Assembly (NCBI RefSeq): GCF_011050055.1
Contig: NZ_DRGM01000086.1
Location: 1 to 35,360, forward strand
Source: Pseudoalteromonas prydzensis
Lineage (GTDB): Bacteria > Pseudomonadota > Gammaproteobacteria > Enterobacterales > Alteromonadaceae
Direction: 5' to 3'
DNA: 35,360 nt
Position 1 is the first letter of the stretch; each line of letters starts with the position of its first letter. Positions 2,436 through 33,374 of this stretch are shown here, piece by piece. The notes under the pieces are model-generated. The model was not told the DNA's origin and searched no databases. It saw only the letters and a list, made by a program, of their open reading frames with translations. A program made the translations under genes and the position numbers.

Positions 2436-3071
2436 ATGAAGTGGTTGTTATTTTGGTTTGTTTCTTTTGCTGGTTTTGCTAACACCACCATTGAGCCGTT
2501 ATCATTTCAAGATGATGCATTAGCACAATGCATTAAAGAAACGGCAGCCGAAAAGCAATGGCATACTATTGAGCAATTTACTGACTTAAAATGCCATGGT
2601 ATGGCCATAAAACACGCACAAGAATTAGCGCAATTTGTAAACTTACAGTCGCTTTCTTTATATAACAATCAGCTCACTGATTTAGATTTAACGTCTTTGA
2701 GCAAACTCACCTTGCTAAATTTAGCCAATAACCAACTCACTCAATTACAAATTCATTCATTAGCTAAGCTAGAAAAGCTTTATCTATTTAAAAATAACCT
2801 CACTACGCTCGACATGACCGGCTTATCTGCTTTACACACTGTAAGAATGATGCAAAATAAACTAACCAAGTTAGATATTTCCCCGTTAACGCAGTTAAAA
2901 ATGGGCTATTTTTTTGATAATCAATTAACGGATCTACAGATCACTGGCTTAAATGAGTTAGAGTTTCTTGATGTACGACAAAACCCCATGTCCGACGAAT
3001 TATATGATTTCTATGATCAACAAGCTGGCGTTGTGATAAGTCATGATGGCAATGCCGATGATTGGAAATAA
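2436..3071 (+). CDS. Secreted leucine-rich-repeat protein
   Basis: A 211-aa protein with a Sec signal peptide (about residues 1-16, ending GFA) and about six leucine-rich repeats of roughly 21 residues between residues 65 and 190, of the form LxxLxLxxNxLTxLDL. Before the repeats is a small cap with two cysteines (QCIKET and LKCHG), a cap often seen on exported LRR proteins of marine gammaproteobacteria; the cysteines could form a disulfide in the periplasm or outside. It is probably a protein-interaction scaffold; no enzymatic motif is seen. It is alone on the plus strand and ends at a bidirectional terminator. Confidence 0.8.
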   Translation: MKWLLFWFVSFAGFANTTIEPLSFQDDALAQCIKETAAEKQWHTIEQFTDLKCHGMAIKHAQELAQFVNLQSLSLYNNQLTDLDLTSLSKLTLLNLANNQLTQLQIHSLAKLEKLYLFKNNLTTLDMTGLSALHTVRMMQNKLTKLDISPLTQLKMGYFFDNQLTDLQITGLNELEFLDVRQNPMSDELYDFYDQQAGVVISHDGNADDWK

Positions 3072-3079
3072 ACACCAAT

Positions 3080-3114
3080 AGAGCAAACCCAACTAAACTG
3101 AGTTTGCTCGTTTT
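3080..3114. terminator. Bidirectional intrinsic terminator
   Basis: GAGCAAAC (3081-3088) and GTTTGCTC (3102-3109) make an 8-bp stem with a 13-base loop, followed by GTTTTAAATT on the plus strand. It sits between two convergent genes, the LRR gene (ends 3071) and the porin gene (ends 3118), and can serve both. Confidence 0.75.
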
Positions 3115-3117
3115 AAA

Positions 3118-4374
3118 TTAAAAATTATAAGCAGCCGACACTTCCCATGTCGATATGTCAGCGTTATTCATTCCAGTATCATTAATGACATTATAGTCAG
3201 CCTGCTCTCTAGCTCTGTAATATGCTGCTATCAGCTTAAACTCCCACTTGCGAGAGTAACGCCATGCCAATTCTAAATCTAACTCATCACCTAACTTTTG
3301 CCTAGTCACTAAGGATTCAAAACTGTGGGCAACAATTTTCCAACGAATTTTTGCCTTGCGTCCAGCATAAGCAACATAAATATCACGCATGCCGCCAAGT
3401 TCATCGTAACGACTAAAAACATCTGCCCAGCCTAAAAATTTATGATTAGTCCCTAAACTTGTTTGAAACCCAACGCCATCATCATCGCCTAAATATTCAT
3501 AGCCTACATCAATACGGTGGCTTTGATATTGCAAACCTAATTCAGTTAATAAGTACCATGTTTGGTAGTTAACAGGGTTATTGGCAGCCTCTTTTTGCCA
3601 GGCTAATTCAACCGTATAGTTATATTTAAACTGGTTAGGTTTTAGCGCACCTTCAAAGTGCACACCAAGCGTGTCAGACGAAAACTGCGAAGCTGAATGA
3701 TTATCCAATAAATAAGCAAAGCTACTGACTTTTAAATTTGCATTGACCCGCTGACTAGCATTAAACAAATGGCTATGGTGCTGATGCTCCCCCAATTCGC
3801 TACTTGGTCGTATTGGGTTATCTTGATAACGGGGATCAGAGCGAGGAAGCTGTGTTCGGCTATCATCGCCATAAATACGCTGCACTTTGTCCACATAACT
3901 ATAACTAAATTGCCAACCAAATCCGTTTTGGTAAGCGAGTGCTGCAGCATCAAAGGTTTGCTCATTTTGCCAGTACGCTGCGCTACCAATATGACGTTCA
4001 TTATCAAAGCTAATGGCTTGACGCCCTAACTTAGCCGACCAATTAGCAGCAAATTGCCAATTTAGGTTAAATTGATTCAGCTCACCGCCTGGGGGATCGG
4101 GAATCGGGGCATGATCGTTAAACTGTGCGATAGAATTATAGCTGTCCGTGTCTAGTGCCCAAACATGATCATACTGAGCAAAAAATGTCAGCGCGTCAGT
4201 TGCTTTTAAACTTGCTTCAAGACGAGCCAGTAAGGTCGTCGCACTGGCATTTTTTAAGGATTGATCATTCACTTGCTGATGACGAGCGCGAAAGCTTGCG
4301 TCATAATCAAAGGTATCTGCAGCCGCTGTTCCTGTCATCATGGTTGTAGCAATAACCATTAATAAACGGCTCAT
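3118..4374 (-). CDS. Alginate-export-like outer-membrane porin
   Basis: A 418-aa beta-barrel protein with a signal peptide (MSRLLMVIATTMM...TAAA, about residues 1-22). The body alternates amphipathic strands rich in W, Y and F, with the phrases LGRQAISFDNERHIGS and FDAAALAYQNGFGWQFSYSYVDKVQRIYGDD typical of the alginate_exp/OprD-like barrel family (PF13372), which form outer-membrane channels for small, often anionic, solutes. The ATG at 4374 overlaps the anti-sigma stop as ATGA, indicating translational coupling, and is preferred to an in-frame start at 4407 that lies before the signal peptide. It is the last gene of the six-gene sigma-factor operon. The family name does not prove alginate as substrate. 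Confidence 0.82.
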   Translation of the reverse strand: MSRLLMVIATTMMTGTAAADTFDYDASFRARHQQVNDQSLKNASATTLLARLEASLKATDALTFFAQYDHVWALDTDSYNSIAQFNDHAPIPDPPGGELNQFNLNWQFAANWSAKLGRQAISFDNERHIGSAAYWQNEQTFDAAALAYQNGFGWQFSYSYVDKVQRIYGDDSRTQLPRSDPRYQDNPIRPSSELGEHQHHSHLFNASQRVNANLKVSSFAYLLDNHSASQFSSDTLGVHFEGALKPNQFKYNYTVELAWQKEAANNPVNYQTWYLLTELGLQYQSHRIDVGYEYLGDDDGVGFQTSLGTNHKFLGWADVFSRYDELGGMRDIYVAYAGRKAKIRWKIVAHSFESLVTRQKLGDELDLELAWRYSRKWEFKLIAAYYRAREQADYNVINDTGMNNADISTWEVSAAYNF

Positions 4375-5111
4375 ACGTTTTCCTGCCAACTGGCCATTTG
4401 AATACATAACCCTTTAGATACTTGAGTGCCCATTGGCTCGCCGTAAGGCGATCCCCCTTTCTCTTCAAGAGTCAGTAATAGGTTTTCTGAATCTTTAATT
4501 AAACGCCATTCGGGCTCAGTAAGTGCTCGGTTAAATACATTTTTATTAATGGGAATAATACCTAAACTGCGTACTTGTTTATCGGTCTTTGAGGTTACCC
4601 ACAATTCTAAACTCATATCACTGGGCACCGTTGGTGTATTTAATAACTCAATCGCCAATGTTCGGCTCCCCCCATAGGTTGTCGCAACTAGCTGAGGCTG
4701 TTGATTTTTATCGTTCATAATGGCGATATAACTAAGTGGATCGGCTTGCTTACTTGGTTGCTGAAAAAAGAGTGTTACTGCTAACGCTAGCAGCGAAAAC
4801 GCACTCGCCGCTTGATAAAAACCAAGTCCAAACCAAGCCGTTAAAGTTTTTTTAGCGTATTGCGGCTGCAGCTGTAATTGCTGTTCAATAGCTTGCCAGG
4901 TATTTTTTTTCGGCATTAGCTCTGGCACATCATTATTTAACGGGGAAAACTTTGCTTCCCAGTAGTTTATGCGTTGATCTAATGCAGTGTGTTGCATTCT
5001 TAACCGGGTAATTCGTTTTCTCACCCGCATCGATTGAGTGCCTAATACATACTGGTGGGCAAGGTGTTCAATTAATTCAGCGTTATGGTAGCGCATTATT
5101 TTGCTAGACAT
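4371..5111 (-). CDS. RskA-like anti-sigma factor
   Basis: A 246-aa membrane protein predicted to hold the ECF sigma factor encoded just upstream. The cytoplasmic N-terminal part contains AHQYVLGT...RVRKRITRL and INYWEAKFSPL, the zinc-less anti-sigma domain pattern of RskA. A single transmembrane helix follows (about residues 98-116, AASAFSLLALAVTLFF). The periplasmic C-terminal domain has SLELWVTSKTDKQVRSLGIIP, as in RskA_C (PF10099). The start at 5111 is chosen because GGTGAGG lies 8 nt upstream; it overlaps the sigma gene by 16 bp. A later ATG at 5096 (TAATG with the sigma stop) is possible. The downstream porin start overlaps its stop. Confidence 0.88.
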   Translation of the reverse strand: MSSKIMRYHNAELIEHLAHQYVLGTQSMRVRKRITRLRMQHTALDQRINYWEAKFSPLNNDVPELMPKKNTWQAIEQQLQLQPQYAKKTLTAWFGLGFYQAASAFSLLALAVTLFFQQPSKQADPLSYIAIMNDKNQQPQLVATTYGGSRTLAIELLNTPTVPSDMSLELWVTSKTDKQVRSLGIIPINKNVFNRALTEPEWRLIKDSENLLLTLEEKGGSPYGEPMGTQVSKGLCIQMASWQENV

Positions 5112-5644
5112 TGTTGTAACCTCACCAGACCACGTTTTAGCCAAGACTTCACTGTATTTAATGGTTTTTCCAGTTTGATAGCAATTTCATCACGACTAAA
5201 ACCATGATAATAAGCCATTAAAATACCTTGGCGTTGAAGCTTTTCTAGCTGCTTGAGGCAATCCTCTAATTGTTGGCCTATTTCACACAGTAACGTGGCA
5301 GATTGTTCGTTCGCAGCAATGTGCTCTTCGTAATTAAGCTCATCGGCAACGAGCTTTCCTTCAAGACGACGACTTTCGCTTCGCACTCTATCGTAACAGC
5401 GATAACGGACTATTGCTGCCATCCATGTAAAAGGCTCAGCTTTATCGCCTCTAAACTCACGGGCATTATGCCAAATTTGCACAAAGGCTTCTTGTAATAC
5501 TTCATTGGCGCTATCAGGATTATGTAAAATTCGATAAGCAATACTATTAAGTTTACTTGCCGTTTGCTCATATAAGTCTCTAAATGCCTGCTGATCATGT
5601 AACGCAATTTTAGCGAGCAGGTCAGCTAGATTGTCTTTATTCAT
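5096..5644 (-). CDS. ECF (group 4) RNA polymerase sigma factor, SigK-like
   Basis: A 182-aa sigma factor with only regions 2 and 4. Region 2 includes FRDLYEQTASKLNSIAYRIL and EVLQEAFVQIWHNA (residues about 20-65, core and -10 recognition); region 4 is the C-terminal helix-turn-helix ILMAYYHGFSRDEIAIKL...TVKSWLKRGLVRL. Pairing with an RskA-type anti-sigma places it in the SigK/ECF19-like class. It lies in mid-operon, 56 bp after the outer-membrane cytochrome-type gene, with its own candidate promoter in that gap. It probably directs transcription of the whole six-gene cluster in response to an envelope signal. Confidence 0.92.
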   Translation of the reverse strand: MNKDNLADLLAKIALHDQQAFRDLYEQTASKLNSIAYRILHNPDSANEVLQEAFVQIWHNAREFRGDKAEPFTWMAAIVRYRCYDRVRSESRRLEGKLVADELNYEEHIAANEQSATLLCEIGQQLEDCLKQLEKLQRQGILMAYYHGFSRDEIAIKLEKPLNTVKSWLKRGLVRLQQCLAK

Positions 5645-5656
5645 GCCATTTACCTT

Positions 5657-5693
5657 AGCCCCGTAAACTTAGATTATACCTAGATACGGGGCT
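5657..5693 (-). promoter_or_regulatory. Inverted repeat and candidate promoter before the sigma gene
   Basis: AGCCCCGTA (5657-5665) and TACGGGGCT (5685-5693) are perfect 9-bp arms around 19 bp. On the minus strand the loop contains TATAAT (5673-5678), and GCAAC (5694-5698) lies 15 bp upstream of it. This may be an internal promoter under operator control or an intercistronic hairpin; there is no T-tract for termination. Confidence 0.4.
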
Positions 5694-5700
5694 GTTGCGC

Positions 5701-6786
5701 CTAAAAATAAAAATGAGTTTGTAGAAATAATTTGTCGTTATTTCGTTGTTCAAACTGTGGAATACTCTCTGCAACTCGGATCCCAGCACGCAATTGCAGA
5801 TGCGATATTGGCGTATATTCAGTCACAAATGAAAAACGTGTTTCCTGATTTTCATCAATGTCTTTATTCGGGTCGTAATACTCCGATGTTAGCTTAAAGT
5901 TTAACCCTTGCCGCCATTGATAGTTGACTTCAAATAACCCGACTAGCTGGGTTCTATCTTGACCATTGCTTTGTTTAGTCAAAATCCAATCCCATTCAGC
6001 TAATAATGTAAAATCAGCAAAGGTGTAGGCGCCATACACATTGACTATTTTTTGCTGGGAGCTATCGCTATCATTCAGTACTAAAGTACTTCCCACCCGT
6101 GCATTAGCAAACTGATGTTCGCCTCGCACACCATATAAAAACTTATTATCATCGTTACTCACTGAGCTAGTACCATTTGAGATAAACAGATTTACTGTGC
6201 TTTGCGTGTAGTCTAGCCCGAGTTCAATACTATTATCACTACTGTCGAAATTGAATCCCGTTGCTTGTCTAACATAAGCCGAATCGTCTTCAAGGCGAAT
6301 ATCAAACGGCGTATACATTTTACCCATTTTAATATAGTGATTATTACTAAACTTATACATGGCAAAAGCTTCACGGTTTACCGCCGCACCCGGTGCTATT
6401 TGTTGATCTAAATAAAAAGTAACCCCTAACTCTTTTGCATTAAGTGCTAAATACAGCTGTGCTGAGTCGATTCTAAATGACGCATTTTCACTGTTAACCT
6501 TATTTTCGTCTTTACTGTATTCAAGGTTACTGCGAAAGTTACCACCTAATTGTAAGTAATCGTTTATTTTCCCTACATCTGCGCTGGTTAGTTTAAGCGG
6601 CTCAACTGGTAGCATGGCATGACCATATAAATTACCAAAACTCGTGCGTAAACCTCCCCCATTGGGATTTACATGGCAGGTGCCACATTTTAAATTATTC
6701 TTATAAGCAATATAAGGCTCCGCCATCACCTGAATATTAACGCTAAGTGCAATGACCAATAAAACGAGTTTAAAAATTTGCTGCAT
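5701..6786 (-). CDS. Outer-membrane beta-barrel protein with N-terminal c-type heme motif
   Basis: A 361-aa exported protein. A signal peptide (about residues 1-22, ending VMA) is followed at once by a CxxCH heme-binding motif (C34, C37, H38) in the setting KCGTCHVNPNGGGLRTSFGN. The rest (about residues 75-361) is a string of alternating beta-strands with porin character, ending in the aromatic QTHFYF expected for outer-membrane insertion by the Bam complex. A heme at the barrel's periplasmic mouth suggests electron transfer at the outer membrane. The gene overlaps the preceding cytochrome lipoprotein gene by 17 bp, with GGTGGAG 9 nt before its ATG. Whether heme is really attached is inference; the precise family name is not recognised. 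Confidence 0.78.
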   Translation of the reverse strand: MQQIFKLVLLVIALSVNIQVMAEPYIAYKNNLKCGTCHVNPNGGGLRTSFGNLYGHAMLPVEPLKLTSADVGKINDYLQLGGNFRSNLEYSKDENKVNSENASFRIDSAQLYLALNAKELGVTFYLDQQIAPGAAVNREAFAMYKFSNNHYIKMGKMYTPFDIRLEDDSAYVRQATGFNFDSSDNSIELGLDYTQSTVNLFISNGTSSVSNDDNKFLYGVRGEHQFANARVGSTLVLNDSDSSQQKIVNVYGAYTFADFTLLAEWDWILTKQSNGQDRTQLVGLFEVNYQWRQGLNFKLTSEYYDPNKDIDENQETRFSFVTEYTPISHLQLRAGIRVAESIPQFEQRNNDKLFLQTHFYF

Positions 6787-7642
6787 AAGTTAATGCTCCA
6801 CCAGGTTGACCATCTGAATTTCCATCTAACTGCTGCCCAAACGTCCCCATTACAGTACCTATTGAGTCTTGATTAAGCACTAAGGTTAGGCTGCTAATTT
6901 GCGCTTGTTTGCCGATACGGATCGTCAGCAAGCGGTTGTTTTGCCAAATAAGTTGATAAGGAATAGACAAAGCACGATCATCTTCCATCAGTAATATTTG
7001 CTCGGCAGGTAAGGTTGATTTGTCAACATCAACACTAAAGCTAATACTGATATCGACGCTATCGTTTGATTGTTGTTGGCTTAACTGAGTAATAAATAAA
7101 GGCGCACTGTTTTCCGCAATTAATGCCCCCTTATCAATCCATTCTCCAATTGCTGCTATATCGGCACTAGAGAGTCCGGGTTGGTTCAATGGCATACGAC
7201 TACCAGCTCTTGGATCGCCAAGTACTTTTAGGTAAATAAAGCTTGCTTCTTTATTACCCGGTGTAACACGCAAAAATTCTGAATTACCAACAGCCGTAAC
7301 ATTAATCAGATTTTTTGCCGTGTTATCTAATGTGTCAAATTGCAAACCAAAAGGTGCATTAGCCCCGACATGACACACTGAGCATATAGGTGTAAATATA
7401 TTTTCTTGTAAAGCAGCCAATGTTGCAGCCTTGTTTTCATCGCCCGGTGGTAATGGCTCTGTTGGCGGCGTACCTTCGTTAACTGGCGGTTGTTCATCAA
7501 CAACTGGGGGCTGCTGCTCTGTCACAGGTGGTTGGTCAACGATGGGCTGACCATTTTCATTTAATAAGCTACCATCACCAGCACCACAGCCATTGAGTAA
7601 CAGTAAAAGCAGCATTAAAAAAATGCAGTTAATTATTTTCAT
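6770..7642 (-). CDS. c-type cytochrome lipoprotein
   Basis: A 290-aa lipoprotein: a very hydrophobic signal ends in lipobox LNGC (lipidated C19), then a proline-rich spacer with repeated QPPV-type units (about residues 32-66). A cytochrome c-like domain follows with CSVCH (C87, C90, H91) and a possible distal methionine in GSRMPLNQPGLS, where the GxxMP phrase is typical of membrane-anchored monoheme cytochromes of the PSCyt type. The C-terminal 100 residues look like a beta domain (SVDVDKSTLPAEQILL...). The proline linker would let the heme domain reach away from the membrane. It is 46 bp downstream of the repeat lipoprotein gene and overlaps the barrel gene by 17 bp, so the three probably work together. 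Confidence 0.82.
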   Translation of the reverse strand: MKIINCIFLMLLLLLLNGCGAGDGSLLNENGQPIVDQPPVTEQQPPVVDEQPPVNEGTPPTEPLPPGDENKAATLAALQENIFTPICSVCHVGANAPFGLQFDTLDNTAKNLINVTAVGNSEFLRVTPGNKEASFIYLKVLGDPRAGSRMPLNQPGLSSADIAAIGEWIDKGALIAENSAPLFITQLSQQQSNDSVDISISFSVDVDKSTLPAEQILLMEDDRALSIPYQLIWQNNRLLTIRIGKQAQISSLTLVLNQDSIGTVMGTFGQQLDGNSDGQPGGALTYAANF

Positions 7643-7659
7643 TATTGATAACCCTATAA

Positions 7660-7680
7660 AAGCTGGACACTGTCCAGCTT
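7660..7680 (-). terminator. Intercistronic palindrome (possible leaky terminator)
   Basis: A 21-bp palindrome with 10-bp perfect arms (7660-7669 and 7671-7680) sits between the repeat lipoprotein gene and the cytochrome gene. On the minus strand the hairpin runs into TTTTATAGGG, so it may act as a partial terminator or mRNA stabiliser that makes more of the first lipoprotein than of the downstream proteins. Confidence 0.5.
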
Positions 7681-7688
7681 ATTGCTAC

Positions 7689-9692
7689 TTATTGACGTGC
7701 TAATGGCCATTGGGCATAGTCACCGAATGTGTCACCAAGCTTTTGATCTGCAGTAAAAAAGTACAGTGGTTTGCCTTTATACGCCCATTGACGTTTGCTA
7801 CTGCCATCATCTTCATTGCGTGTAATGATGCTAAATAAGCCCGTTGCTTGATCATTGTCATTGGCATACAGCGGTGGCCATGTTGCGGCGCAGCCAGCAA
7901 AACAGCTTGATTCGCCTGAATCCTTTTGATCAACATCAAAGGTGTAAAGTGATAGCGTTTGTAGTTCTTCTGCTGTTTTTCCAATGCTTGGCTCTAGCAG
8001 GCCATTAGCAACAAAGTATGCACCTTTAGCAGAGTCATTAAATAAGCGAACAGGAGCCGAGCGTGCCACATACCACACGTCACCAACCCCCTCTCCGCTG
8101 GTTGCTTGTGCATCGCTATCTGCACTAAAAAAGTACAGTGGTTTACCATTAACAGCCCATTGTTTAAAGCCGTCGTTTCTGTCAATAATGCTATAAGAGC
8201 CCGTAGCTTTATCTGCGCTCGTTGCAAGTAGCGGGGGCCAAGCTGTAATGCATGCCGCGCTTGTACAGCTTGAGCTGCCATTGCTATCGGCATTAAAGGT
8301 ATACAGTGCAAAGCCTGTTTTATCTTGTTGTTGCGCAATAAAGTTGCCACTGCCGTCATCAACTAACAATAATGTGCTTCCGGTTACTGTCAGCGTGTCG
8401 CCAAGTGAACTATTTTCTGATGTTAACTGGGTTTTTGCTGCTGGTTTAATAATGTGCCAAACGCCACCTAAGCCGTCGCCATTAGCTTGAGCTTTGTCGG
8501 TGTCATTTGCAAAAAAGTATAAGGGTTGCTGCTGGTAAGCCCATTGTTTAGTGCCATCTTCTCGCGTGAAAATACTAAAATCACCAGTTGCTTCGCTATT
8601 TTCATTGGCTAAAAATGGTGGCCAAGTAACAGCGCAGTTGGCGCTACAATTAGAGGCGCTATTAGCGTCGTTATCGAAGGTATAAAGCGTATGTTGATCG
8701 AAGTTTGTTACTGTGGTTATAAAACTACCTGGTGCGGCGGGATCTTCAGCTAATATGCTGGTTTTACCACTGGCAGTTAACAAAGTGCCTGCATCATTAG
8801 TACGGAAAATTGCGGGTTCCGTTGTCGCTAGATGCCACACATTACCTACATTGTCGCCTAATTTATCACCTTGCGTTTGATCACTAGCAAAAAAGTACAA
8901 TGGCTTACCATTATATGCCCACTGCTTGCTATCGTTTCGGCTCAGTAACGAAAACAATCCTTCGCTATGGGCTCCTTGATCAGCCATTAGCGGCGGCCAA
9001 GTATTTACACATTGGTCACTCGTACAGTTAGTCGTGTCGATAGCATCAACATCAAAGATATACAAACTAAAACCAGTTTTATCAATTCGCGCTAACTCGA
9101 TAACCTCAGATGCAGAGCTTGCTACTCGTACCACGTCACTCCCAACGAGCTGTTGTTCATTAATAACTACTGGTCGCGGGCGAGCTAAATGCCAAATATT
9201 ATTGAGACCATCACCGTTAATGTCGCCTTCACTACTATCATTAACATACTGATATAATGGACGGCCATGTAACGCCCACTGTAATGTGCCGTCATCTCGA
9301 TTTATAATGCTGAAATCATCACTGGCTTGGCTATTTTGTTCAGCCAGCAAAGGTGGCCAAATAGCGGCGCAGCTACTGCTGTCATTACTTGAACCCGCAG
9401 CCGCTCCCTGCTCTGCATTACACACCGATTGATCTTTTGGATCATTTGCAAATACATATAACGACAAACCAAACTCACTTGTAAACACAGTGCCGTTTTC
9501 AGCTAGGCTCACTTTTTTAGGCTGCGTTGATTGAACAGGAAACTGGCTACCACTCGGTGTGCTTGTTACTGGCGGCTTAGCTTGCTCTGCTGGCGTTGTT
9601 TGGGTTGTATTATTATCACTTCCGCCACAGGCTGTTAAACTCATTGACACAACTGCCAATGCAACCAAGCGAGATACTTTATTTATTTTCAT
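7689..9692 (-). CDS. Five-repeat Yx(FWY)xxD lipoprotein (COG4315 type)
   Basis: A 667-aa lipoprotein with lipobox LTAC (C22). It carries five tandem units of about 120 residues, each with LYxFxxD, a pair of cysteines, a WPP motif (IWPPLLA, TWPPLMA, TWPPFLA, AWPPLLA, TWPPLYA), then FSIxxRxDGxxQWAxxGxPLYFFxxD and a tryptophan phrase such as GxVWHLA. This is the secreted repeat behind the conserved Yx(FWY)xxD lipoprotein family, whose role is unknown; single-repeat members are the rule, so five is long. It is the first gene of the six-gene operon, and its partners are a cytochrome lipoprotein and a heme-bearing barrel, which suggests a redox or metal-related role at the surface. AGAGAG lies 7 nt before the ATG. 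Confidence 0.85.
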   Translation of the reverse strand: MKINKVSRLVALAVVSMSLTACGGSDNNTTQTTPAEQAKPPVTSTPSGSQFPVQSTQPKKVSLAENGTVFTSEFGLSLYVFANDPKDQSVCNAEQGAAAGSSNDSSSCAAIWPPLLAEQNSQASDDFSIINRDDGTLQWALHGRPLYQYVNDSSEGDINGDGLNNIWHLARPRPVVINEQQLVGSDVVRVASSASEVIELARIDKTGFSLYIFDVDAIDTTNCTSDQCVNTWPPLMADQGAHSEGLFSLLSRNDSKQWAYNGKPLYFFASDQTQGDKLGDNVGNVWHLATTEPAIFRTNDAGTLLTASGKTSILAEDPAAPGSFITTVTNFDQHTLYTFDNDANSASNCSANCAVTWPPFLANENSEATGDFSIFTREDGTKQWAYQQQPLYFFANDTDKAQANGDGLGGVWHIIKPAAKTQLTSENSSLGDTLTVTGSTLLLVDDGSGNFIAQQQDKTGFALYTFNADSNGSSSCTSAACITAWPPLLATSADKATGSYSIIDRNDGFKQWAVNGKPLYFFSADSDAQATSGEGVGDVWYVARSAPVRLFNDSAKGAYFVANGLLEPSIGKTAEELQTLSLYTFDVDQKDSGESSCFAGCAATWPPLYANDNDQATGLFSIITRNEDDGSSKRQWAYKGKPLYFFTADQKLGDTFGDYAQWPLARQ

Positions 9693-9727: not shown

Positions 9728-9754
9728 ATTACGCCGTTAACCAAAAAAAGTTGC
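9728..9754 (-). promoter_or_regulatory. Candidate ECF-type promoter of the six-gene operon
   Basis: On the minus strand GCAAC (9750-9754) and CGTAAT (9728-9733) are 16 bp apart, upstream of the lipoprotein gene at 9692. An AAC-type -35 and a CGT-type -10 are usual for ECF sigma factors. GCAAC also precedes the TATAAT in front of the sigma gene. The match is short and unproven. Confidence 0.35.
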
Positions 9755-9849
9755 AGTGCATATAAATTTTTTTCATTTATTTTTTAATTACCTGAAATTA
9801 GGCAGTCAATTAAATAAGGATTGCCGTGTAGGCTGGGAAGCGTTATGGG

Positions 9850-18729: not shown

Positions 18730-20445
18730 TTACAGTGTGTTGTTTAGTAACAACAAACCATAGCCTGCGAGTTGTTCGCCATTGAGGTCGTGTTGCCAAC
18801 TGGCGGTTAAACCGTCACGAGCGATGTTAGCAATAGTTTGTGGGTTAGCCGTTAAATTAAGCACGAACACACTTTTACTGCCGTTTAACTCACGGGTTAT
18901 TTCAACTAGGCCGTTGTTGTGTTGAGTTAACGTGTAGCTGCCTTTAATGCCGAGCTCTGGGCGCTGTTTTTTCTGCGCGATTAATAATTTATATAGCTGC
19001 CAAATAGAGTCTGGCTTTGCTTGCTGGGCGGCTACGCTGCGATCTACTGCCGCAAGTTGCTCGGCTAAAAATGCTGGCCACCAGCTGGCAAAATCATCAC
19101 CAAACAATTCACTGTGTTCAACCCAACTGTTTTTAGCTGTGGTAAAGCCTGCTTGATTGCTGTTATTCCATTGCATTGGCGCGCGTTTATAAACGTCGTG
19201 ACCTGTGCCACCTTGTGTTAAGCCAATTTCTTCACCGTAGTAAATATAGGGGGTGCCCGGTGAGCTAAATAACATGGCGGCGGCAAGCTTTGCCTTGTCG
19301 TCATGCTCTGCTAGCTGATAAGCCACTCGCTCTTGGTCGTGATTGGTTAAAAACGGCGCAAAAAAGTCAAGTGGTGCGCTCGAGTCTATACGCTGCTGTA
19401 AGTTTTGCTTGAGCACATTGGCATTAACCGTATTTTTTTGCTGGTTAGATTGCATTGTGCCAAATTGCGCTTCGCCACTGGCGTCTGGCTTTAATAAGCC
19501 AAGGATTTTATAGCCCACTTCAAAGTCAAAACCTTGATCGAGTCCTTTGCCATCGCCGTAATAACGCGCGGCAATTGGAATATCTGCCCATGCTTCACCG
19601 ACTAAGTACGCGTCTGGATCAACACTTTTTACATACTGATTAAAGTGCTGCCAGTAAGCAATGGTTTCATCGGTGTCGGCTTGTGCATTGCCGCCGCTTT
19701 CCATGGCAAAGCGTACTGCGTCTAATCTAAAGCCTGCTACGCCTTTATCGAGCCAAAACTTGGCCATTTTTTCCATTTCGGCAATCACGTCGGGATGGCG
19801 TAAATTTAAATCAGGTTGGCTGGCACCAAATGCGCCATAGTAATATTGCTGACGGGTGTCACTCCAATGCCATACTGCATCTGGCTTGTCGTTATCGCTC
19901 CATGCGTGGCCCCAGCCACTGCCCGCTTTTGGCAAGTCGTCACGCCACACAAAATAGTCACTGTAAGGGCGCTCGCCGTTTGCAGAGCGTTTAAACCATG
20001 GGTGTTCGCTTGAAATATGGTTAATCACTAAATCGAGTATCACCTTCATGCCTTTGTCGTCAGCGGCTTTTATAAAGGCTTCAAATTCTGCCATGCTGCC
20101 ATAGTCGCTTTCTACTTGGTAAAACTCAGTAAAGTCGTAACCATGGTAAGACGGCGCTTCAAACATGGGGGTTAACCACAAGGCATTGACGCCGAGCTGT
20201 TGTAAATACGGCAGCTTTTTGCTCATGCCGTTAAAATCGCCATGGCCGTCACCGTCGCTGTCATAAAAGCTGCGTGGCCAAATTTGATAAAATATCGCAC
20301 TTTGCCACCATGGCGTGGCGTGTTGTTCGCCACTGATTTGCGCCGTAGCGGCTGTATTAGTATTTTGTGTGTTAGTTGTAGGTGCGCTCTGGCAGCCCGT
20401 TAACATTAAAGCGAGGGCCAACGCACTCAAGGTAAAGGTTTTCAT
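18730..20445 (-). CDS. GH13 alpha-glucosidase/amylase lipoprotein
   Basis: A 571-aa lipoprotein (lipobox LTGC, C18) of glycoside hydrolase family 13. Conserved regions: DLVINH (138-143), GFRLDAV with nucleophile D242, VGEAW with acid/base E284, and TNHD with D370. The opening WWQSAIFYQIWPRSFYDSDG is that of oligo-1,6-glucosidase/alpha-glucosidase-like GH13. It probably trims malto-oligosaccharides at the cell surface or in the periplasm. GGAG lies just before the ATG. It is the last of four co-directional genes (GH13, MFS, GH15, GH13), 72 bp after the GH15 gene with a hairpin in the gap. Confidence 0.92.
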   Translation of the reverse strand: MKTFTLSALALALMLTGCQSAPTTNTQNTNTAATAQISGEQHATPWWQSAIFYQIWPRSFYDSDGDGHGDFNGMSKKLPYLQQLGVNALWLTPMFEAPSYHGYDFTEFYQVESDYGSMAEFEAFIKAADDKGMKVILDLVINHISSEHPWFKRSANGERPYSDYFVWRDDLPKAGSGWGHAWSDNDKPDAVWHWSDTRQQYYYGAFGASQPDLNLRHPDVIAEMEKMAKFWLDKGVAGFRLDAVRFAMESGGNAQADTDETIAYWQHFNQYVKSVDPDAYLVGEAWADIPIAARYYGDGKGLDQGFDFEVGYKILGLLKPDASGEAQFGTMQSNQQKNTVNANVLKQNLQQRIDSSAPLDFFAPFLTNHDQERVAYQLAEHDDKAKLAAAMLFSSPGTPYIYYGEEIGLTQGGTGHDVYKRAPMQWNNSNQAGFTTAKNSWVEHSELFGDDFASWWPAFLAEQLAAVDRSVAAQQAKPDSIWQLYKLLIAQKKQRPELGIKGSYTLTQHNNGLVEITRELNGSKSVFVLNLTANPQTIANIARDGLTASWQHDLNGEQLAGYGLLLLNNTL

Positions 20446-20476
20446 TGCATCTCCGTTATTATTTTAGTGAATGCAC

Positions 20477-20500
20477 CTAGCCGTAAGTTAATACGGCTAG
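20477..20500 (-). other. Intercistronic hairpin between the GH15 and GH13 genes
   Basis: CTAGCCGTA (20477-20485) and TACGGCTAG (20492-20500) make a perfect 9-bp stem with a six-base loop. No T-tract follows, so it is more likely an mRNA stability or processing element than a terminator. Confidence 0.5.
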
Positions 20501-20517
20501 TCATTTGCTGGAAAAGG

Positions 20518-22920
20518 TTATTGCAGTGCGTTTTCAACCACGGGGTAATGATCCCACACTTGCTTGTCGTGTAATGAACGAAGTAGTTTGATGTATTCAG
20601 CATGGGTCCACGCCAGTGGTGTGGCTGAGTTAGTGCCCTCGCCTAGCTTATACCCTGCTTTATTAACCCCTACGCCATCCCATACTTGCTCTGGTAGCAT
20701 AAACCCTTGGTTAGCAAATGTTTCCATACCTTTTACATAGGTGTTTTTGATGGCGTTTTGCTTAGTGGTATCAAGGCTATTTGTGGCATTAGCGGCAGCA
20801 ATTTCATAATGACCTCGCTCGCCGGTAAAAAACGGCCATACTCGCCCACGTTGCCCTGGGGTTTTTATGCCGCCTTCAGCGTAGTTTGCGCCCGTTACTT
20901 CGTCTTCACCGTAACCGTCGTTGCCATAACGGCGATAGCCAGAGAAAGTGCCTGAGCCGTCGGCAAACTCAAATGTGTAATGCACTTGCAAGTTATCTTC
21001 TAAGCTTTGATCATCATACTCAGGTAAGGTTTTAACAATACTCGGTGCGTTGGCATCTCTAACTCCATAACGTACTAGCTCTAAAAAGCCGCCGTCGAGA
21101 ATTTGCTTTTTATTAAAGCCTTCACGGCCATTATTGGCACTAATTTTAGTGTTTGAATTGGCGTCTTTATCTTGGCCAATACGAATGAAATATTCGCCGT
21201 CGCTTGCTTTTGAGTCAAGGTTGCCTTGGGTTGTAAACATGGTGTTTTCAATGTCGGCATTATAGCTTTTTGCGGTTGTAAGATAGCGCTTAGCATTGGC
21301 CTCATCACCCGCCATTTTGGCAATGTCGGCGGCGGTAATTAAACCCGCTATAACCGCTGCGCTGGTTGACGGTGAATAACCCTCTTGCTCTTCCCAGCGC
21401 TCTTGTTGCGTGGCCGGTGGTGTTATTTGTGTGTCGTTCCATAAAATTTTAGCGCGGCCGCCATCCACTAAAAAATCAGCCGCGGGCTTTAACATACGCC
21501 CATACCAATCTGTGAGCTCGCCATCAGTTAATACACCTGCTTGGTGAAGCTTCCACGCTAGCATAATCGGCATCGCGGTTTGATCAAGCTGCACGCCTAC
21601 CCACTCAAGCTCGCCATCAACATGCGTTTTTTGTAAAAACCAGCCTGTATCACCTTGGTTACCTGGGGTATTTTGGTTGACTTGCACTTTATCTAAATAT
21701 TCGAATGCGGTTTTTGCAGTGTGGGTATCGCCCATGGCCATAAATGCCATCGCCACTTGATAAAAGTCACGCACCCATACCGCTTTATAACCGGTAGAGC
21801 CTGTTTTAGCAGAGACCGTTTCGCCCCATGGGTTAGATAAAGACGCAATAAGCGCACCGGCATGAGTTTTATCTTCTTGCGCTTTTAGCACCATGGCACT
21901 GGTGTACAGTAATTTGCCGTTATCTGCGCTGCTGTTCACTAGGCTTGCAAGAGGTGCCAAGCTGCTAAGGTAATCCTGCCAGCCTATCGCCTCACCTTTA
22001 CCATTGTAGTTATCAAGTACAGTTTGATAACCACGGGCTAAACTTGCTTGGCCTTCTTTAAAACTGGCTTGCTCGCTGTTGCCAAAACTAAGGGTTAAAT
22101 CAAACTGACTATTTTTGCCAATTTCACCTAGCTCTGCCAATAAACTCACATTACCCGATTGCTCACCGGTGTTTTTATAAACCTTGGTAAGCTGCTGGGT
22201 TGTTTTAAGCTCGCTTAAACCATCACTCACACCTATAAAACCAACACTTGTTTGTTTAAAAGGTTGTGCGCTTTGTAACGTTAAATAATTATCATCTTGC
22301 CACGCAACCAGCCCTTGCTCGGTGGTTTTTGCAAAGTCATCTAGGCCATTATTGTCAATGTATGGGTTAACATTAACAAAGGCTTTTACCCCTTCAAGCT
22401 CAGTATTAAATATACTGCGTACAAATAATGTTTGCCCGTCTGGATCGGTGAATATGTGTTTTTCGAGACTAAAGCGCCCTTGCTTGTCTTTGCTTGTTAC
22501 TTTGTAAGCCAGCGATAATGGCCGCCCTGCTTGATCTTTGTATAAGTAATCAATGCTTACATCTAAATCATCCGCTTCTGTAACGGTAAAGTCTTTGCCC
22601 ACCACTATAAATTGCATGTCTTTAATTTGTGCTTGGTGAATAAGCCCAAACATGGTTTCGGTGATCATGCCTTTGGCAATGGAAAACCATACTTTTGACA
22701 CTGTGCCAGTGGCGGCACTATCACTGTATTGGCCATCTTGATATTGCTCAAACGAGGTACCAATACCAGTTTTACCCGAATACGCCCAAAATGGCTCGGC
22801 GCCGGGGGCGCCTGGCGCTGATAACTGCACACTTGGTTTGGGTGTATCAGCTTGCTCAGAGCTACACGCGCTAAGGCCAAGGGCCAGTATAGTTGCGGTA
22901 ATAATGTTATAGTTTTTCAC
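20518..22920 (-). CDS. GH15 glucoamylase lipoprotein (glucodextranase-like)
   Basis: An 800-aa lipoprotein (lipobox LSAC near residue 18) that should release glucose from non-reducing ends of maltodextrins. The N-terminal beta-sandwich begins APGAPGAEPFWAYSGKTGIGTS, typical of the glucodextranase N domain (PF09137). The catalytic (alpha/alpha)6 barrel shows WVRDFYQVAMAF, EWVGVQLDQTAMPIMLAW, RWEEQEGYSPSTSA (general acid) and WPFFTGERGHYE (general base). The start is GTG at 22920: AGGGGA lies 6 nt upstream and the lipoprotein signal begins there. A longer in-frame start at 23025 lies inside the transporter gene and adds no signal. It follows the MFS gene by 16 bp. Confidence 0.92.
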   Translation of the reverse strand: MKNYNIITATILALGLSACSSEQADTPKPSVQLSAPGAPGAEPFWAYSGKTGIGTSFEQYQDGQYSDSAATGTVSKVWFSIAKGMITETMFGLIHQAQIKDMQFIVVGKDFTVTEADDLDVSIDYLYKDQAGRPLSLAYKVTSKDKQGRFSLEKHIFTDPDGQTLFVRSIFNTELEGVKAFVNVNPYIDNNGLDDFAKTTEQGLVAWQDDNYLTLQSAQPFKQTSVGFIGVSDGLSELKTTQQLTKVYKNTGEQSGNVSLLAELGEIGKNSQFDLTLSFGNSEQASFKEGQASLARGYQTVLDNYNGKGEAIGWQDYLSSLAPLASLVNSSADNGKLLYTSAMVLKAQEDKTHAGALIASLSNPWGETVSAKTGSTGYKAVWVRDFYQVAMAFMAMGDTHTAKTAFEYLDKVQVNQNTPGNQGDTGWFLQKTHVDGELEWVGVQLDQTAMPIMLAWKLHQAGVLTDGELTDWYGRMLKPAADFLVDGGRAKILWNDTQITPPATQQERWEEQEGYSPSTSAAVIAGLITAADIAKMAGDEANAKRYLTTAKSYNADIENTMFTTQGNLDSKASDGEYFIRIGQDKDANSNTKISANNGREGFNKKQILDGGFLELVRYGVRDANAPSIVKTLPEYDDQSLEDNLQVHYTFEFADGSGTFSGYRRYGNDGYGEDEVTGANYAEGGIKTPGQRGRVWPFFTGERGHYEIAAANATNSLDTTKQNAIKNTYVKGMETFANQGFMLPEQVWDGVGVNKAGYKLGEGTNSATPLAWTHAEYIKLLRSLHDKQVWDHYPVVENALQ

Positions 22921-22936
22921 TGTGTGTCCCCTAAAA

Positions 22937-24421
22937 TTATGATTGTTTAACGCGCAGCACGGCAATTGCGGCAAACACCAACGACAGCGCACCCAGCAAT
23001 AATGCGTAAATAGGCTGGTTATCAAAAAAGTGGCGTAAAATTAAGCCTAAAATACTGGCGGCAAGTAATTGTGGGATCACAATGAAGAAGTTAAAAATCC
23101 CCATAAACACGCCCATTTTATGGCTCGGCACTGAGGTGCTCAGCATTGCATACGGCAGCGATAAAATTGACGCCCACGCAAAACCAATACCTATCATTGG
23201 CCAAATAAGTAATTGCGGATCGGGTATCACAATAAAACTCGCCAGACCTAGCGCCCCTAAAATAAGGTTAAAGCAATGCGCCCACTGTATACCGATTTTT
23301 TTCACAATGAATGGAATACACAATGCGGCCAGTGCAGCAAACCCATTGTAAGCAGCAAACAATACGCCAACCCAATCTGCACCATTGTTGTAAGCAACTG
23401 AGCTGGTATCACTGCTACCATAATGAAAACTGGTTACCGCTGAAGTGGTGTAAATCCACATTGCAAATAACGCAAACCAGCTAAAAAATTGCACCCACGC
23501 CAGTTGTTTCATCGTTTCTGGCATAGTGAATACATCGTTGATCACTTGATAAAAACCACCCGATGTTTTACCTGTTGCTTTTAACCGCGCTGCTATAAAT
23601 TGGATCACGCCAAAAGAGATCAATCCAGCGGAAAGTAAATACAACTCTTTTTCAAGCTTAAGGCCAACAACCAAGGCTAATACAGCAACCCCTAAGCCAA
23701 TAAATATCAGCGCGCCTTTATTAAAATTAACTTTATTTTCAATAACCTGCTCTGATGCATTGGCGTCTTGTTGGTTAAACTCGGCAAGTTCTTTGGGTGA
23801 ATATTCTTTGGTGGTCACTATGGTCCAGCCAACCGCGACAAATAAAATAACCGCACCAAAGTAAAACGAATATTTTACAGAATCAGGAATTTGCCCAGCG
23901 GCTGCGGTGTTAGCAATATCAAACCAGTTGGTCATCATCCAAGGTAAGGCCGATGCCACCACCGCGCCTACACCAATAAAAAAGCTTTGCATAGCATACC
24001 CAGTTGCTCGTTGCTTTTTATTGAGGTTATCGCCAACCAAAGCCCGAAACGGTTCCATAGTGACGTTAATAGAGGCATCCATGATCCACAACATACCTGC
24101 CGCAATCCATAGCGTGGGTGAGTTTGGCATAATAAATAACGACAAGGTGGTGAGGATTGCACCATATAAAAAGAATGGCCGACGGCGACCTAGTTTGCCC
24201 CAGGTTTTGTCGCTCCAAAAGCCAATAATTGGCTGCACAATTAAGCCCGTTAACGGCGCAGCAATCCATAAAATAGGAATATCATCAACATTCGCGCCTA
24301 AGGTTTGAAATATACGGCTGACATTACCGTTTTGTAATGCAAAACCAAATTGAATGCCTAAAAAGCCAAAGCACATGTTCCATATTTGCCAAAAGCTTAG
24401 GTTGGGTTTGTTATTATTCAT
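22937..24421 (-). CDS. MFS maltose/maltodextrin transporter (SLC45/GPH-like)
   Basis: A 494-aa inner-membrane carrier with about twelve transmembrane helices. The start [24 protein letters not shown] and the loop-2 motif [19 protein letters not shown] are those of the MFS sugar/cation symporters that replace ABC maltose importers in Caulobacter, Shewanella and other TonB-receptor users. It should bring maltose or short dextrins into the cytoplasm, probably with protons. GGAG stands 6 nt before the ATG, which overlaps the end of the GH13 gene upstream by 8 bp. The GH15 gene follows by 16 bp. Confidence 0.9.
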
Positions 24422-26303
24422 TATGTGCTCCAGTGGTCAATACTGCACTGCTAAGCGCATTTAACGTTAAACTGATTTTTACCTGCTCAGGTGTGATTGT
24501 TAACACGGCAGTTTGATTAGCTTCGAGCAGATCAAGTAATTGCTGCTCTGCCTGTTTGTGGTTTGCTAATGTGTTAAGTGGAATATCAATACTTACCGTA
24601 TTTTCTTGCTCGGCAAAGTTGCTCACCACCCAAATGTGTTGTTGACCAATACTGCGGCTAAACGCGGCAACTTGGTCGCTACCTGTCACTGTTAACGGGT
24701 GCATGTCACCGGCAACAACCGCAGGATGTTTACTCAACGCCATAACCGCTTTGTAATATTCACGTAACTGACTTTGCTCGGCAGTTAATGCGCCGCCATC
24801 AAACTTGCCGTTGTTCATCCACGCTTGATGCGCTGGCACGCCAATATAATCAAAAATACTGGTGCGAGTTGGTTTGCCAAAACCAGCCTCTTCAGAGCCA
24901 TCTTCACCTACATCTTGGCCAAAATATAATAGTGTTGGCGAGCGGCTAATAAGGTTTGATACTACCAATGCGGGTTTGCCCTTTTCACTGCTACCTGCAA
25001 AATCTGGGCTGGCAATGCGTTGTTCGTCATGGTTTTCTAGAAAATGCAGCATGTGCTGTTCAATATCTGCCACTTGTTGCTGTGCTGCAAAAATGCTGCT
25101 CGCGGCTTGAGTGCCTTGCATCACGGCCTTTAGGGTGTCGTAAAAGCCCACTTTATCGTACAAGTAGTCCATTTTGCCTTGCTGGATATACGGGCGATAT
25201 AAATCTGGGTTGTATACTTCGGCTAGTAAAAATGCCTCTGGGTTGTGCATCTTGATAGATGAATTTAAAAAGCTCCAAAACTCCACGGGCACCATTTCAG
25301 CCATATCATAGCGAAAACCATCTACGCCTTTATCGAGCCAATACAACGCGATATCACGAAATTTATACCAGCTGTTTGGCAATTCTTTATCTTGCCAAAA
25401 TTCAAAGTGCGCGCGTAAATCTTGATTGGCATAATCGTTTGGTAACGTTGGAAAGTCGTAGCTACCATCGGGTTTTACACCGTAGTTAACTTTAACCGTT
25501 TCGTACCAATCGTTACTATCAGGCTTGGCAGCTCGGGCACCGTTACCAGTCCATTTTGCAGGCGTTTCATCAAATAAGTTGTCTGCAAGTGGGTGGGTAT
25601 TACCGCCCAGTACTTGGTAATTTTCACTGGTTGGTACTTGAAATGACTGCCCAGTAACGTAGTAAAAGTTATTATCGCGGGCATACTCTACGCTGGTGTC
25701 ATCTTGCTCACCAAAATCTTTCACACCAGCAGGTTTAGCAGTAGATTGATAATGACGCGCCACATGATTTGGCACAATATCAATCACCACTTTCATACCG
25801 TGTTGGTGGGTGCGCTCAATCAATGCCGCAAATTCTTCAAGGCGGCGCTCTGGATTGATTGCTAAATCAGGGTTTACATCGTAATAGTCTTTAATAGCAT
25901 AAGGAGAGCCGGCACGGCCTTTCACTACATCCGGATCATCTTGGCTAATTCCATATTGGCTGTAATCGCCTACCAGCGCGTGGTGAAGCACGCCGGTATA
26001 CCAAATATGGGTGGTACCAAGTTCTTTAATACCTGCTAATGCGACATCGTTAAAATCACTAAATGTGCCTACGCCATTTTGCTCTTTGGTTCCCCATGGC
26101 ACATTGGCTGTTTGGGTATTACCAAATAAACGGGTGAATACTTGGTAAACCACCGGCTTTGAATGTTCGTTAACTTGTTCAGCTACTTTTTTGTCGGCAC
26201 TGGGGATTGTGGGCTCATCTGAGCAGCTCGATAACAATAAGCTACTAGCTAATACCCATGAGCCATATTTAAATGTACTAATTGTGGTTTTGTTTGTTGT
26301 CAT
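24414..26303 (-). CDS. GH13 alpha-amylase lipoprotein
   Basis: A 629-aa lipoprotein (lipobox LSSC, C27), first gene of the four-gene glucan operon. GH13 landmarks: DIVPNH (175-180), GFRYDM with nucleophile D333, LLAEVY with acid/base E362, and LENHDEQR with D426. The 130-residue insert between the first conserved regions (AIKDYYDVNPDLAINPERR and on) and VVYQVFTRLFG at the start resemble GH13 amylases found beside MFS maltose carriers in Alteromonadales and Bacteroidetes. It is probably an envelope endo-amylase or maltogenic enzyme. A glucan-type operator (26405-26418) and promoter lie 100 bp upstream. Confidence 0.9.
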   Translation of the reverse strand: MTTNKTTISTFKYGSWVLASSLLLSSCSDEPTIPSADKKVAEQVNEHSKPVVYQVFTRLFGNTQTANVPWGTKEQNGVGTFSDFNDVALAGIKELGTTHIWYTGVLHHALVGDYSQYGISQDDPDVVKGRAGSPYAIKDYYDVNPDLAINPERRLEEFAALIERTHQHGMKVVIDIVPNHVARHYQSTAKPAGVKDFGEQDDTSVEYARDNNFYYVTGQSFQVPTSENYQVLGGNTHPLADNLFDETPAKWTGNGARAAKPDSNDWYETVKVNYGVKPDGSYDFPTLPNDYANQDLRAHFEFWQDKELPNSWYKFRDIALYWLDKGVDGFRYDMAEMVPVEFWSFLNSSIKMHNPEAFLLAEVYNPDLYRPYIQQGKMDYLYDKVGFYDTLKAVMQGTQAASSIFAAQQQVADIEQHMLHFLENHDEQRIASPDFAGSSEKGKPALVVSNLISRSPTLLYFGQDVGEDGSEEAGFGKPTRTSIFDYIGVPAHQAWMNNGKFDGGALTAEQSQLREYYKAVMALSKHPAVVAGDMHPLTVTGSDQVAAFSRSIGQQHIWVVSNFAEQENTVSIDIPLNTLANHKQAEQQLLDLLEANQTAVLTITPEQVKISLTLNALSSAVLTTGAHNE

Positions 26304-26370
26304 AATGTTCTTACTTAGATCTGACGTTTTAATGGATTGTCATTTAAACGTCATTTTTATTATAAATTTA

Positions 26371-26418
26371 ATACTAAAGTGAACAGCCACTGACTGACAG
26401 CGGCTGCATACGTATTCA
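26371..26418 (-). promoter_or_regulatory. Operator TGAATACGTATGCA and promoter of the GH13-MFS-GH15-GH13 operon
   Basis: The 14-bp LacI-type operator occupies 26405-26418 and is identical to the one at 32785-32798. Four bases downstream begin CTGTCA (26395-26400) and, 18 bp on, TAGTAT (26371-26376), acceptable -35 and -10 elements. A TATAAT at 26359-26364 is an alternative -10. The operator upstream of the -35 suggests activation. Confidence 0.6.
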
Positions 26419-26426
26419 CACAGGCT

Positions 26427-28271: not shown

Positions 28272-28272
28272 A

Positions 28273-29772: not shown

Positions 29773-29813
29773 AGCACCTGCTCCACTTGCTTTTAGTTAA
29801 GTGTAGTCGATAT

Positions 29814-29845
29814 AAAAAAGCCCTTGTAAAACAAATCACAAGGGC
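29814..29845 (-). terminator. Intrinsic terminator of the TonB-receptor gene
   Basis: On the minus strand GCCCTTGT (29838-29845) and ACAAGGGC (29820-29827) form an 8-bp stem with a ten-base loop, followed by six Ts (29814-29819). It lies 20 bp after the receptor's stop and 42 bp before the halogenase start, so it probably reduces rather than abolishes transcription of the halogenase/GH13 pair. Confidence 0.88.
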
Positions 29846-29864
29846 CTTTCAACGCTAAAGAATG

Positions 29865-32651: not shown

Positions 32652-32749
32652 GATGTGTTTCCCGTTACCCAATTTTATATTACTAACTTTTAGCGAGTTG
32701 CTTGTGATAGAAGCAAAACCATTTGTTAGCTATTTTGTTGTCAGGATGA

Positions 32750-32798
32750 ATATTAACGCCCGCCTTATTTTATTAACAACTTTATGCATACGTATTCA
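32750..32798 (-). promoter_or_regulatory. Operator TGAATACGTATGCA and promoter of the TonB-receptor gene
   Basis: On the minus strand the operator (32785-32798) is followed after five bases by TTGTTA (32774-32779) and, 18 bp on, TAATAT (32750-32755). Start expected near 32743, giving a leader of about 90 nt. The geometry repeats that at 26371-26418 and 33207-33255. Confidence 0.62.
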
Positions 32799-33255: not shown

Positions 33256-33374
33256 TTTTAAAAAATAACGTAGTTCGTTTTAATCGAACTGCTAACAAGA
33301 TTACGAACACACCATTTCTAAACAGCAATAATTGCTAGGGTAAAATGGACAGTGTTGTCACGATGGAGAAAAAA

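What the first reader, a model, noticed from the sequence alone, without database searches (positions are those of the whole stretch)
3118..9692. Six-gene operon joining surface heme proteins, a five-repeat lipoprotein, a porin and a sigma/anti-sigma switch
All six genes run on the minus strand with gaps of 46 and 56 bp or overlaps of 17, 16 and 4 bp. The contents (Yx(FWY)xxD repeat lipoprotein, CxxCH lipoprotein, CxxCH barrel, ECF sigma, RskA anti-sigma, alginate-export-like porin) would place a lipid-anchored heme donor and a heme-bearing barrel together at the outer membrane, under a dedicated stress switch. That resembles a minimal porin-cytochrome conduit, but none of the proteins is a known MtrABC homologue. 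Each family is known; the combination as a self-regulated redox or metal-handling module is, as far as I know, not described. Function is inference.
Basis: partly seen in the sequence, partly recalled or inferred. Interest (0 to 1): 0.78.

Follow-up and report, generated by a model that had tools for sequence, protein, structure and literature searches.

The report
Sigma-switched outer-membrane heme conduit
Six neighbouring genes of a Pseudoalteromonas, kept together in related bacteria behind one conserved promoter-like sequence, are predicted to build a heme-carrying channel that would pass electrons across the outer membrane and that is likely switched on by its own redox-sensitive regulator.

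Summary
In detail: genes, order, gaps and overlaps are as described. Synteny exists: 12 of 34 compared loci with the heme barrel have the contiguous six-gene order, two more have one gene inserted, and the CxxCH lipoprotein gene lies directly upstream of the barrel gene in 34 of 34.
New: (1) a promoter-like sequence, GCAACT-N14..16-CGTA, precedes the heme genes in 18 of 18 loci that go with the cognate sigma unit and in 0 of 15 other testable loci; where the sigma gene is set apart it has its own copy, 5 of 5. (2) The SigK-like sigma keeps SigK's redox cysteine pair, 18 of 18. (3) The barrel is a predicted 16-strand porin with one N-terminal heme motif, the architecture of the iron oxidase Cyc2, but it lacks Cyc2's defining motif (0 of 32); its seven weak matches in a phylum sample are Cyc2-like.
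Best reading: a Cyc2-like single-heme conduit under a dedicated redox sigma switch. Heme attachment, electron transfer, partner and direction are untested.

The parts
9730..9755 (-). Predicted ECF promoter TGCAACTTTTTTTGGTTAACGGCGTA (-35 TGCAACTT, -10 CGTA), 37 bases upstream of the lipoprotein start
   Evidence: Pattern present in 18 of 18 loci that go with the cognate sigma unit, 0 of 15 other testable loci; two strict-pattern matches in the whole genome, the other with a spacer one base shorter
7689..9692 (-). Lipoprotein of five double Yx(FWY)xxD repeats (Lipoprotein_15, SCO0930-type)
   Evidence: PF03640 305 bits, NF040526 278.7 over cut-off 275; 10 motifs; lipobox LTAC by eye
6770..7642 (-). 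Lipid-anchored single-heme c-type cytochrome (CSVCH; later RMPL as possible Met ligand)
   Evidence: PF00034 just below cut-off; CxxCH or CxxxxCH in 34 of 34 loci; lipobox LNGC by eye
5701..6786 (-). Fused cytochrome-porin: CGTCH just after the signal peptide, then a predicted 16-strand barrel
5657..5693 (-). RNA hairpin without a T-run between barrel and sigma gene, possible partial attenuator or processing site
   Evidence: z -2.0 here; z -5.2 in L011 and -5.8 in L076 with unrelated sequence; no clear strong hairpin by eye in most other contiguous loci
5096..5644 (-). SigK-like ECF sigma factor with Cys129 and Cys179
   Evidence: Best NCBIfam hit SigK PRK09646 E 7.3e-42, 143 bits against a cut-off of 226; best solved relative SigK 4nqw, both cysteines aligned
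4371..5111 (-). RskA-type membrane anti-sigma factor
   Evidence: PF10099 50.3 bits
3118..4374 (-). Alginate-export-type (AlgE-like) porin
   Evidence: 91 of 120 listed homologues carry PF13372; orthologue L012 over cut-off
3081..3109 (-). Terminator-like hairpin at the end of the operon
   Evidence: 13-pair stem, z -4.6
2436..3071 (+). Convergent leucine-rich-repeat protein, conserved next to the operon
   Evidence: LRR_4 57.7 bits; present in 15 of 16 loci that hold the sigma-RskA unit

Best explanation
The six genes are a conserved, likely co-transcribed block predicted to make an outer-membrane, single-heme electron conduit that its own SigK-like sigma factor likely turns on when the cell's redox state changes. 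Shown by sequence: gene order, promoter-like sequence, heme motifs, cysteine pair, family assignments. Predicted: the barrel is a 16-strand porin whose short N-terminal c-heme segment would sit at the periplasmic mouth, as proposed for Cyc2; the lipid-anchored cytochrome c, encoded just upstream in every locus compared, would be its one-electron partner; the repeat lipoprotein would be a binding module, and the AlgE-like porin would admit the substrate. Inferred: RskA holds the sigma factor at the inner membrane; the Cys129-Cys179 disulfide would tighten that grip when oxidised, and reduction (or cleavage of RskA) would free sigma, which would start transcription at TGCAACTT-N-CGTA in front of the whole operon, including its own gene, giving positive feedback. 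The likely job is exchange of single electrons with a soluble extracellular metal ion or small molecule; direction and partner are untested.
For: Synteny: of 34 distinct barrel loci, 12 contiguous six-gene order, 2 with one inserted gene, 1 with two facing units, 1 with a split lipoprotein frame and no adjacent porin, 2 with the sigma unit elsewhere in the genome, 16 without a cognate sigma beside them; cytochrome lipoprotein directly upstream of the barrel in 34 of 34. Promoter-like sequence in 18 of 18 of the first five groups and 0 of 15 testable loci of the last; about 2.5 matches expected in all loci together by Markov shuffles. Sigma genes set apart (L070, L071, L081, G919, G982) have their own copy, 5 of 5. 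Cys129/Cys179 in 18 of 18 cognate sigmas, aligned with two SigK cysteines in 4nqw; PMC7509140 (passages) reports that SigK's pair controls RskA binding by redox state. Barrel: CxxCH in 34 of 34, 16 strands, first VIA matches OprP 2o4v and OprO 4rjw, the two templates named for Cyc2 in PMC8406198 (sections read). All 7 non-self matches of the barrel profile in 299 phylum genomes are Cyc2-like, 6 by motif and 1 by overlap with a Cyc2-like hit. The genome has CcmF for c-heme attachment.
Confidence: 0.55

Rival explanations
1. The operon is an envelope uptake or metal-handling system: the two porins and the repeat lipoprotein bind and admit a metal or organic ligand, and the hemes only sense or reduce it locally without a conduit through the membrane.
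For: Two porins in one operon; GDxNGDG loops, like calcium sites, in the repeat lipoprotein (consensus).
Against: The part kept in 34 of 34 loci is the heme pair, not the AlgE-like porin or repeat lipoprotein, and every barrel keeps CxxCH.
Confidence: 0.25
2. The barrel is a true Cyc2 iron oxidase and the operon is an iron-oxidation pathway.
For: Same architecture, and Cyc2-like proteins are the weak matches of its profile in the phylum sample.
Against: AXPXFAR[QK][TY] in 0 of 32 and PXL in 0 of 32; profile alignment to Cyc2-like proteins covers only about 100 columns.
Confidence: 0.1
3. The CxxCH of the barrel binds no heme and is a structural disulfide, as CxxC motifs in MtrB-type barrels are thought to be (recalled, from no call); the operon is an ordinary envelope stress regulon.
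For: N-terminal segment poorly modelled.
Against: His and the following N, GGG and R are invariant in 32, which a disulfide alone does not need; the neighbour has a c-type heme motif in 34 of 34.
Confidence: 0.1

Closest known systems
Cyc2 fused cytochrome-porin (PMC8406198)
   Same: Signal peptide, one CXXCH right after it, then a 16-strand barrel of OprP/OprO type; A-x-P-x-hydrophobic-[AS] lead-in in 28 of 32; weak profile matches in the phylum sample are Cyc2-like
   Different: Lacks AXPXFAR[QK][TY] and PXL; has NPxGGGxR instead; 361 aa against a 365 aa minimum; cytochrome-lipoprotein neighbour in every locus compared; SigK/RskA-type control in one family
MtrCAB / porin-cytochrome complexes
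   Same: Barrel plus c-type cytochrome, predicted at the outer membrane
   Different: One heme motif per protein in the window, one of them fused to the barrel; no MtrB-family match over cut-off in the genome, two weak ones below it
SigK-RskA (ECF18/ECF19)
   Same: SigK is best family and best solved relative; RskA partner adjacent; redox cysteine pair conserved
   Different: Below the SigK model cut-off; predicted targets are outer-membrane heme proteins behind TGCAACTT/CGTA
SCO0930 / Lipoprotein_15 (PF03640) lipoproteins
   Same: Same repeat family, over the SCO0930 model cut-off
   Different: Five double repeats, embedded in a cytochrome operon; Pfam gives the family no function

Membership tests
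Cyc2 | Signal peptide and a single N-terminal CXXCH | tested here: met
   One CxxCH per barrel in 34 of 34 loci; signal peptide judged by eye
Cyc2 | AXPXFAR[Q/K][T/Y] motif upstream of CXXCH (PMC8406198) | tested here: not met
   0 of 32 barrels; 11 of 13 Cyc2-like sequences, most of which had been picked by a looser form of that motif; relaxed form in 28 of 32 barrels
Cyc2 | PXL motif downstream of CXXCH | tested here: not met
   0 of 32 barrels, 10 of 13 Cyc2-like sequences
Cyc2 | 16-strand porin of OprO/OprP type | tested here: met
   16 strands in the model; first VIA matches 2o4v and 4rjw, chitoporin 1.1 Z behind; Foldseek ranks chitoporin first
Cyc2 | Length at least 365 aa | tested here: not met
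   361 aa; open frames of the strong family matches 351-405 aa, so marginal
Cyc2 | Fe(II) oxidation | not testable with these tools
   -
MtrCAB porin-cytochrome complex | MtrB/PioB-family barrel (PF11854) | tested here: not met
   No Pfam hit in the barrel at E up to 0.1; two genome matches elsewhere, 20.8 and 20.2 bits under the cut-off of 23
MtrCAB porin-cytochrome complex | Multiheme cytochromes | tested here: not met
   One CxxCH each in the window's cytochrome lipoprotein and barrel; some relatives' lipoproteins have two or three
SigK-RskA type ECF switch | SigK-type sigma next to an RskA_C anti-sigma | tested here: met
   PRK09646 is the best hit but under its cut-off; PF10099; 4nqw best solved relative
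SigK-RskA type ECF switch | Conserved redox cysteine pair | tested here: met
   18 of 18 cognate sigmas, aligned with SigK
SigK-RskA type ECF switch | Redox control of sigma-RskA binding | not testable with these tools
   -
Alginate export porin PF13372 | Score over the Pfam cut-off | tested here: inconclusive
   Window protein none; orthologue L012 26.1 over 25.2; 91 of 120 listed homologues
Lipoprotein_15 PF03640 | Score over the Pfam cut-off | tested here: met
   305.3 bits

The most novel reading that the evidence does not exclude
A second, undescribed family of fused cytochrome-porins, paired with a lipid-anchored cytochrome, lets heterotrophic Gammaproteobacteria such as Pseudoalteromonas, Colwellia and Thalassotalea pass single electrons through the outer membrane, and in one family it is wired as a positive-feedback circuit to a thiol-redox SigK switch, so that the cell builds the conduit when its own redox balance demands it.
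Probability: 0.35. Interest if true: 0.85.

Novelty: new variant of a known kind. Interest (0 to 1): 0.68.

Why it matters
Extracellular electron exchange is mostly studied (as I recall) through multiheme MtrCAB systems and Cyc2 iron oxidisers. A compact single-heme barrel paired with a cytochrome lipoprotein in heterotrophs such as Pseudoalteromonas and Colwellia, under its own redox sigma factor, would extend that ability to bacteria not known for it. It also gives a handle, a sigma factor and a predicted promoter, to turn the system on and ask what it does, and places the orphan Lipoprotein_15 repeats in a testable setting.

Tried and rejected
MtrB homology: no genome match over cut-off. 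Pfam and NCBIfam for the barrel: none at E up to 0.1. PDB sequence relatives at E up to 1: barrel none, Cyc2-like alignment none, RskA none, repeat lipoprotein one at E 0.12, cytochrome lipoprotein only a cytochrome c6 at E 0.19. Repeat lipoprotein fold: model pLDDT 87.9, no PDB match at E up to 0.001; a missing match does not show a new fold. Sigma-70 scan: 14 promoter-like sites against 16.1 expected, uninformative, so the TATAAT-like string in the barrel-sigma gap was not used. Wider regulon: one search found 31 strict matches in 14 of 15 genomes, backward control 13; I looked at 30 of the 31 and, apart from operon genes and two GTP cyclohydrolase II genes, saw no recurring target, so no wider regulon is claimed.

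Rows dropped before counts: L078 (same contig as L012 by length and scores); the weak matches of G437, G473, G554 and G762 (not Cyc2-like by motif); second weak matches of G594 and G807, not examined. L039 has no sequence upstream of its lipoprotein gene, so the promoter test has 15, not 16, loci in the second group. Of the genomes of that group, 13 were searched for the sigma (best identity 47% or less); G581 and G521 were not, and G800 (L086) holds the cognate sigma at its other barrel copy. In some searches the porin query began one codon before its start. One search read L146 and L148 on the wrong strand; one search mended that. An earlier count said 2 of 61 genomes where says 2 of 60, and entry 2 gives the promoter distance from the far end of the site.

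Literature: searches (several returned capped lists out of 33 to 868 papers); in the titles and abstract openings listed I saw no paper on this operon. Seen beyond listings: PMC8406198 abstract, section 4 part 1 of 3, sections 12 and 13; PMC7509140, PMC8078820 and PMC8805035 passages only. Most subscription journals are not held, so absence in print is not proven.
Full report
What is there. The six minus-strand genes lie where stated, with gaps of 46 and 56 and overlaps of 17, 16 and 4 bases. Pfam and NCBIfam give Lipoprotein_15 (305 bits, over the SCO0930 model cut-off), a cytochrome c domain just under its cut-off, an ECF sigma factor, and RskA_C; the barrel has no family hit and the porin none by itself, though 91 of its 120 listed homologues are alginate-export porins (orthologue L012).

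Distribution. In a sample of 36 genomes of the genus the barrel is in the window's genome and one other; 24 of 395 genomes in a family sample and 6 of 394 in an order sample, own genome included; 5 of 369 in a class sample besides the own genome, one of them cut by a contig end. The samples overlap. I compared 34 distinct loci. The cytochrome lipoprotein gene lies directly upstream of the barrel gene, same strand, in 34 of 34. Contiguous six-gene order: 12. One gene inserted between barrel and sigma: 2 (L070, L071). Two facing units: 1 (L081). Split lipoprotein frame and no adjacent porin: 1 (L077). Cytochrome-barrel pair with the sigma unit elsewhere in the genome: 2 (L072/G982, L073/G919). 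These 18 are all in the window's family. The other 16 loci have no cognate sigma beside them; two of them (L022, L023) have the repeat lipoprotein, and at least three (L022, L023, L041) have a different ECF sigma gene nearby. The convergent LRR gene accompanies 15 of the 16 loci that hold the sigma-RskA unit. Flanks read by eye mostly differ between genera; L020 and L074, of one genus, share a neighbour.

Promoter. Upstream of the first heme-module gene a sequence recurs: TGCAACTT at -35 and CGTA at -10, with 16 or 17 bases between GCAAC and CGTA. With the pattern GCAACT-N14..16-CGTA it is in 18 of 18 loci of the first group and 0 of 15 testable loci of the second (L039 ends at the gene); Markov shuffles of all loci give 2.5 matches in total. 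Two of the 18 (L080, L083) lie inside an over-extended ORF start. In the second group, 13 genomes searched have no sigma closer than 47% identity; the exception is L086, a second, distant barrel copy in G800, whose first copy has sigma and promoter sequence. Five sigma genes stand apart from the heme genes or behind an inserted gene, and all five have their own copy (L070, L071, L081; G919, G982). In the 13 loci where sigma follows the barrel directly, none has a copy in front of sigma (12, L077). In L070 and L071 a hairpin with a T-run closes the heme unit. This is what an autoregulated operon should look like after splitting. That the sigma factor reads this site is inference.

Sigma factor. 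The best NCBIfam hit is SigK (under its cut-off) and the best solved relative is SigK in 4nqw; Cys129 and Cys179 align with two of its cysteines. They are kept in 18 of 18 cognate sigmas (17 entries without the L078 duplicate, and G982). Six other ECF factors have neither; two paralogues there and, by eye, the G338 sigma have both. PMC7509140 (passages) reports that the oxidised pair stabilises SigK-RskA and that reduction releases SigK. Transfer of that behaviour to this sigma is inference.

Mechanism. The part conserved furthest is the heme pair, so the core function is likely redox. A lipid-anchored class-I-like cytochrome next to a heme-motif barrel suggests one-electron transfer between periplasm and outside; c-heme attachment is possible because CcmF is present. 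The repeat lipoprotein and AlgE-like porin look accessory: 6 of 8 genomes searched, G982 among them, have no PF03640 protein. Direction, partner and whether both hemes are attached are untested.

Novelty. Fused cytochrome-porins, SigK-RskA switches and Lipoprotein_15 are known kinds. The pairing of a non-Cyc2 fused heme barrel with a cytochrome lipoprotein under a SigK-type self-regulated promoter was not seen in the searches named under Tried and rejected, and I rate it a new variant of a known kind.

Noticed in passing
window 18730-35000: The operon sits beside a large alpha-glucan utilisation cluster (several alpha-amylase-like enzymes, TonB receptor, transporter; a LacI-type regulator at 1328-2353); named by eye, apparently unrelated since relatives have other flanks.
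   Followed up: no
window 2436-3071: A small leucine-rich-repeat protein is conserved convergently next to the operon in 15 of 16 loci, and in G338 a similar one lies directly behind a SigK-like sigma and RskA-like pair.
   Followed up: partly
L022, L023, L041: The same cytochrome-barrel pair lies near a different ECF sigma; in L023 the next genes are an anti-sigma-sized protein and a subtilase-domain protein (PF00082), so ECF control may have been recruited more than once.
   Followed up: partly
L143 1501-2238; L141 798-1526: In genomes G982 and G919 a GTP cyclohydrolase II gene also has the sigma promoter pattern in front of it, which would link flavin synthesis to the switch.
   Followed up: partly
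L043 3094-7804: A Cyc2-like gene lies about 2.7 kb from an ECF sigma gene with a small anti-sigma-like frame behind it.
   Followed up: no
window 7689-9692: The repeat lipoprotein has GDxNGDG loops like calcium sites and a cysteine pair per double repeat; its confident model has no PDB match at E up to 0.001.
   Followed up: partly
window 5657-5693; L011; L076: Hairpins of unrelated sequence, without T-runs, between barrel and sigma gene in three loci; by eye most other contiguous loci lack a clear one.
   Followed up: partly
L071 1313-2538: A second, divergent ECF-RskA pair with the same cysteine pair lies about 2.4 kb upstream of the operon.
   Followed up: no
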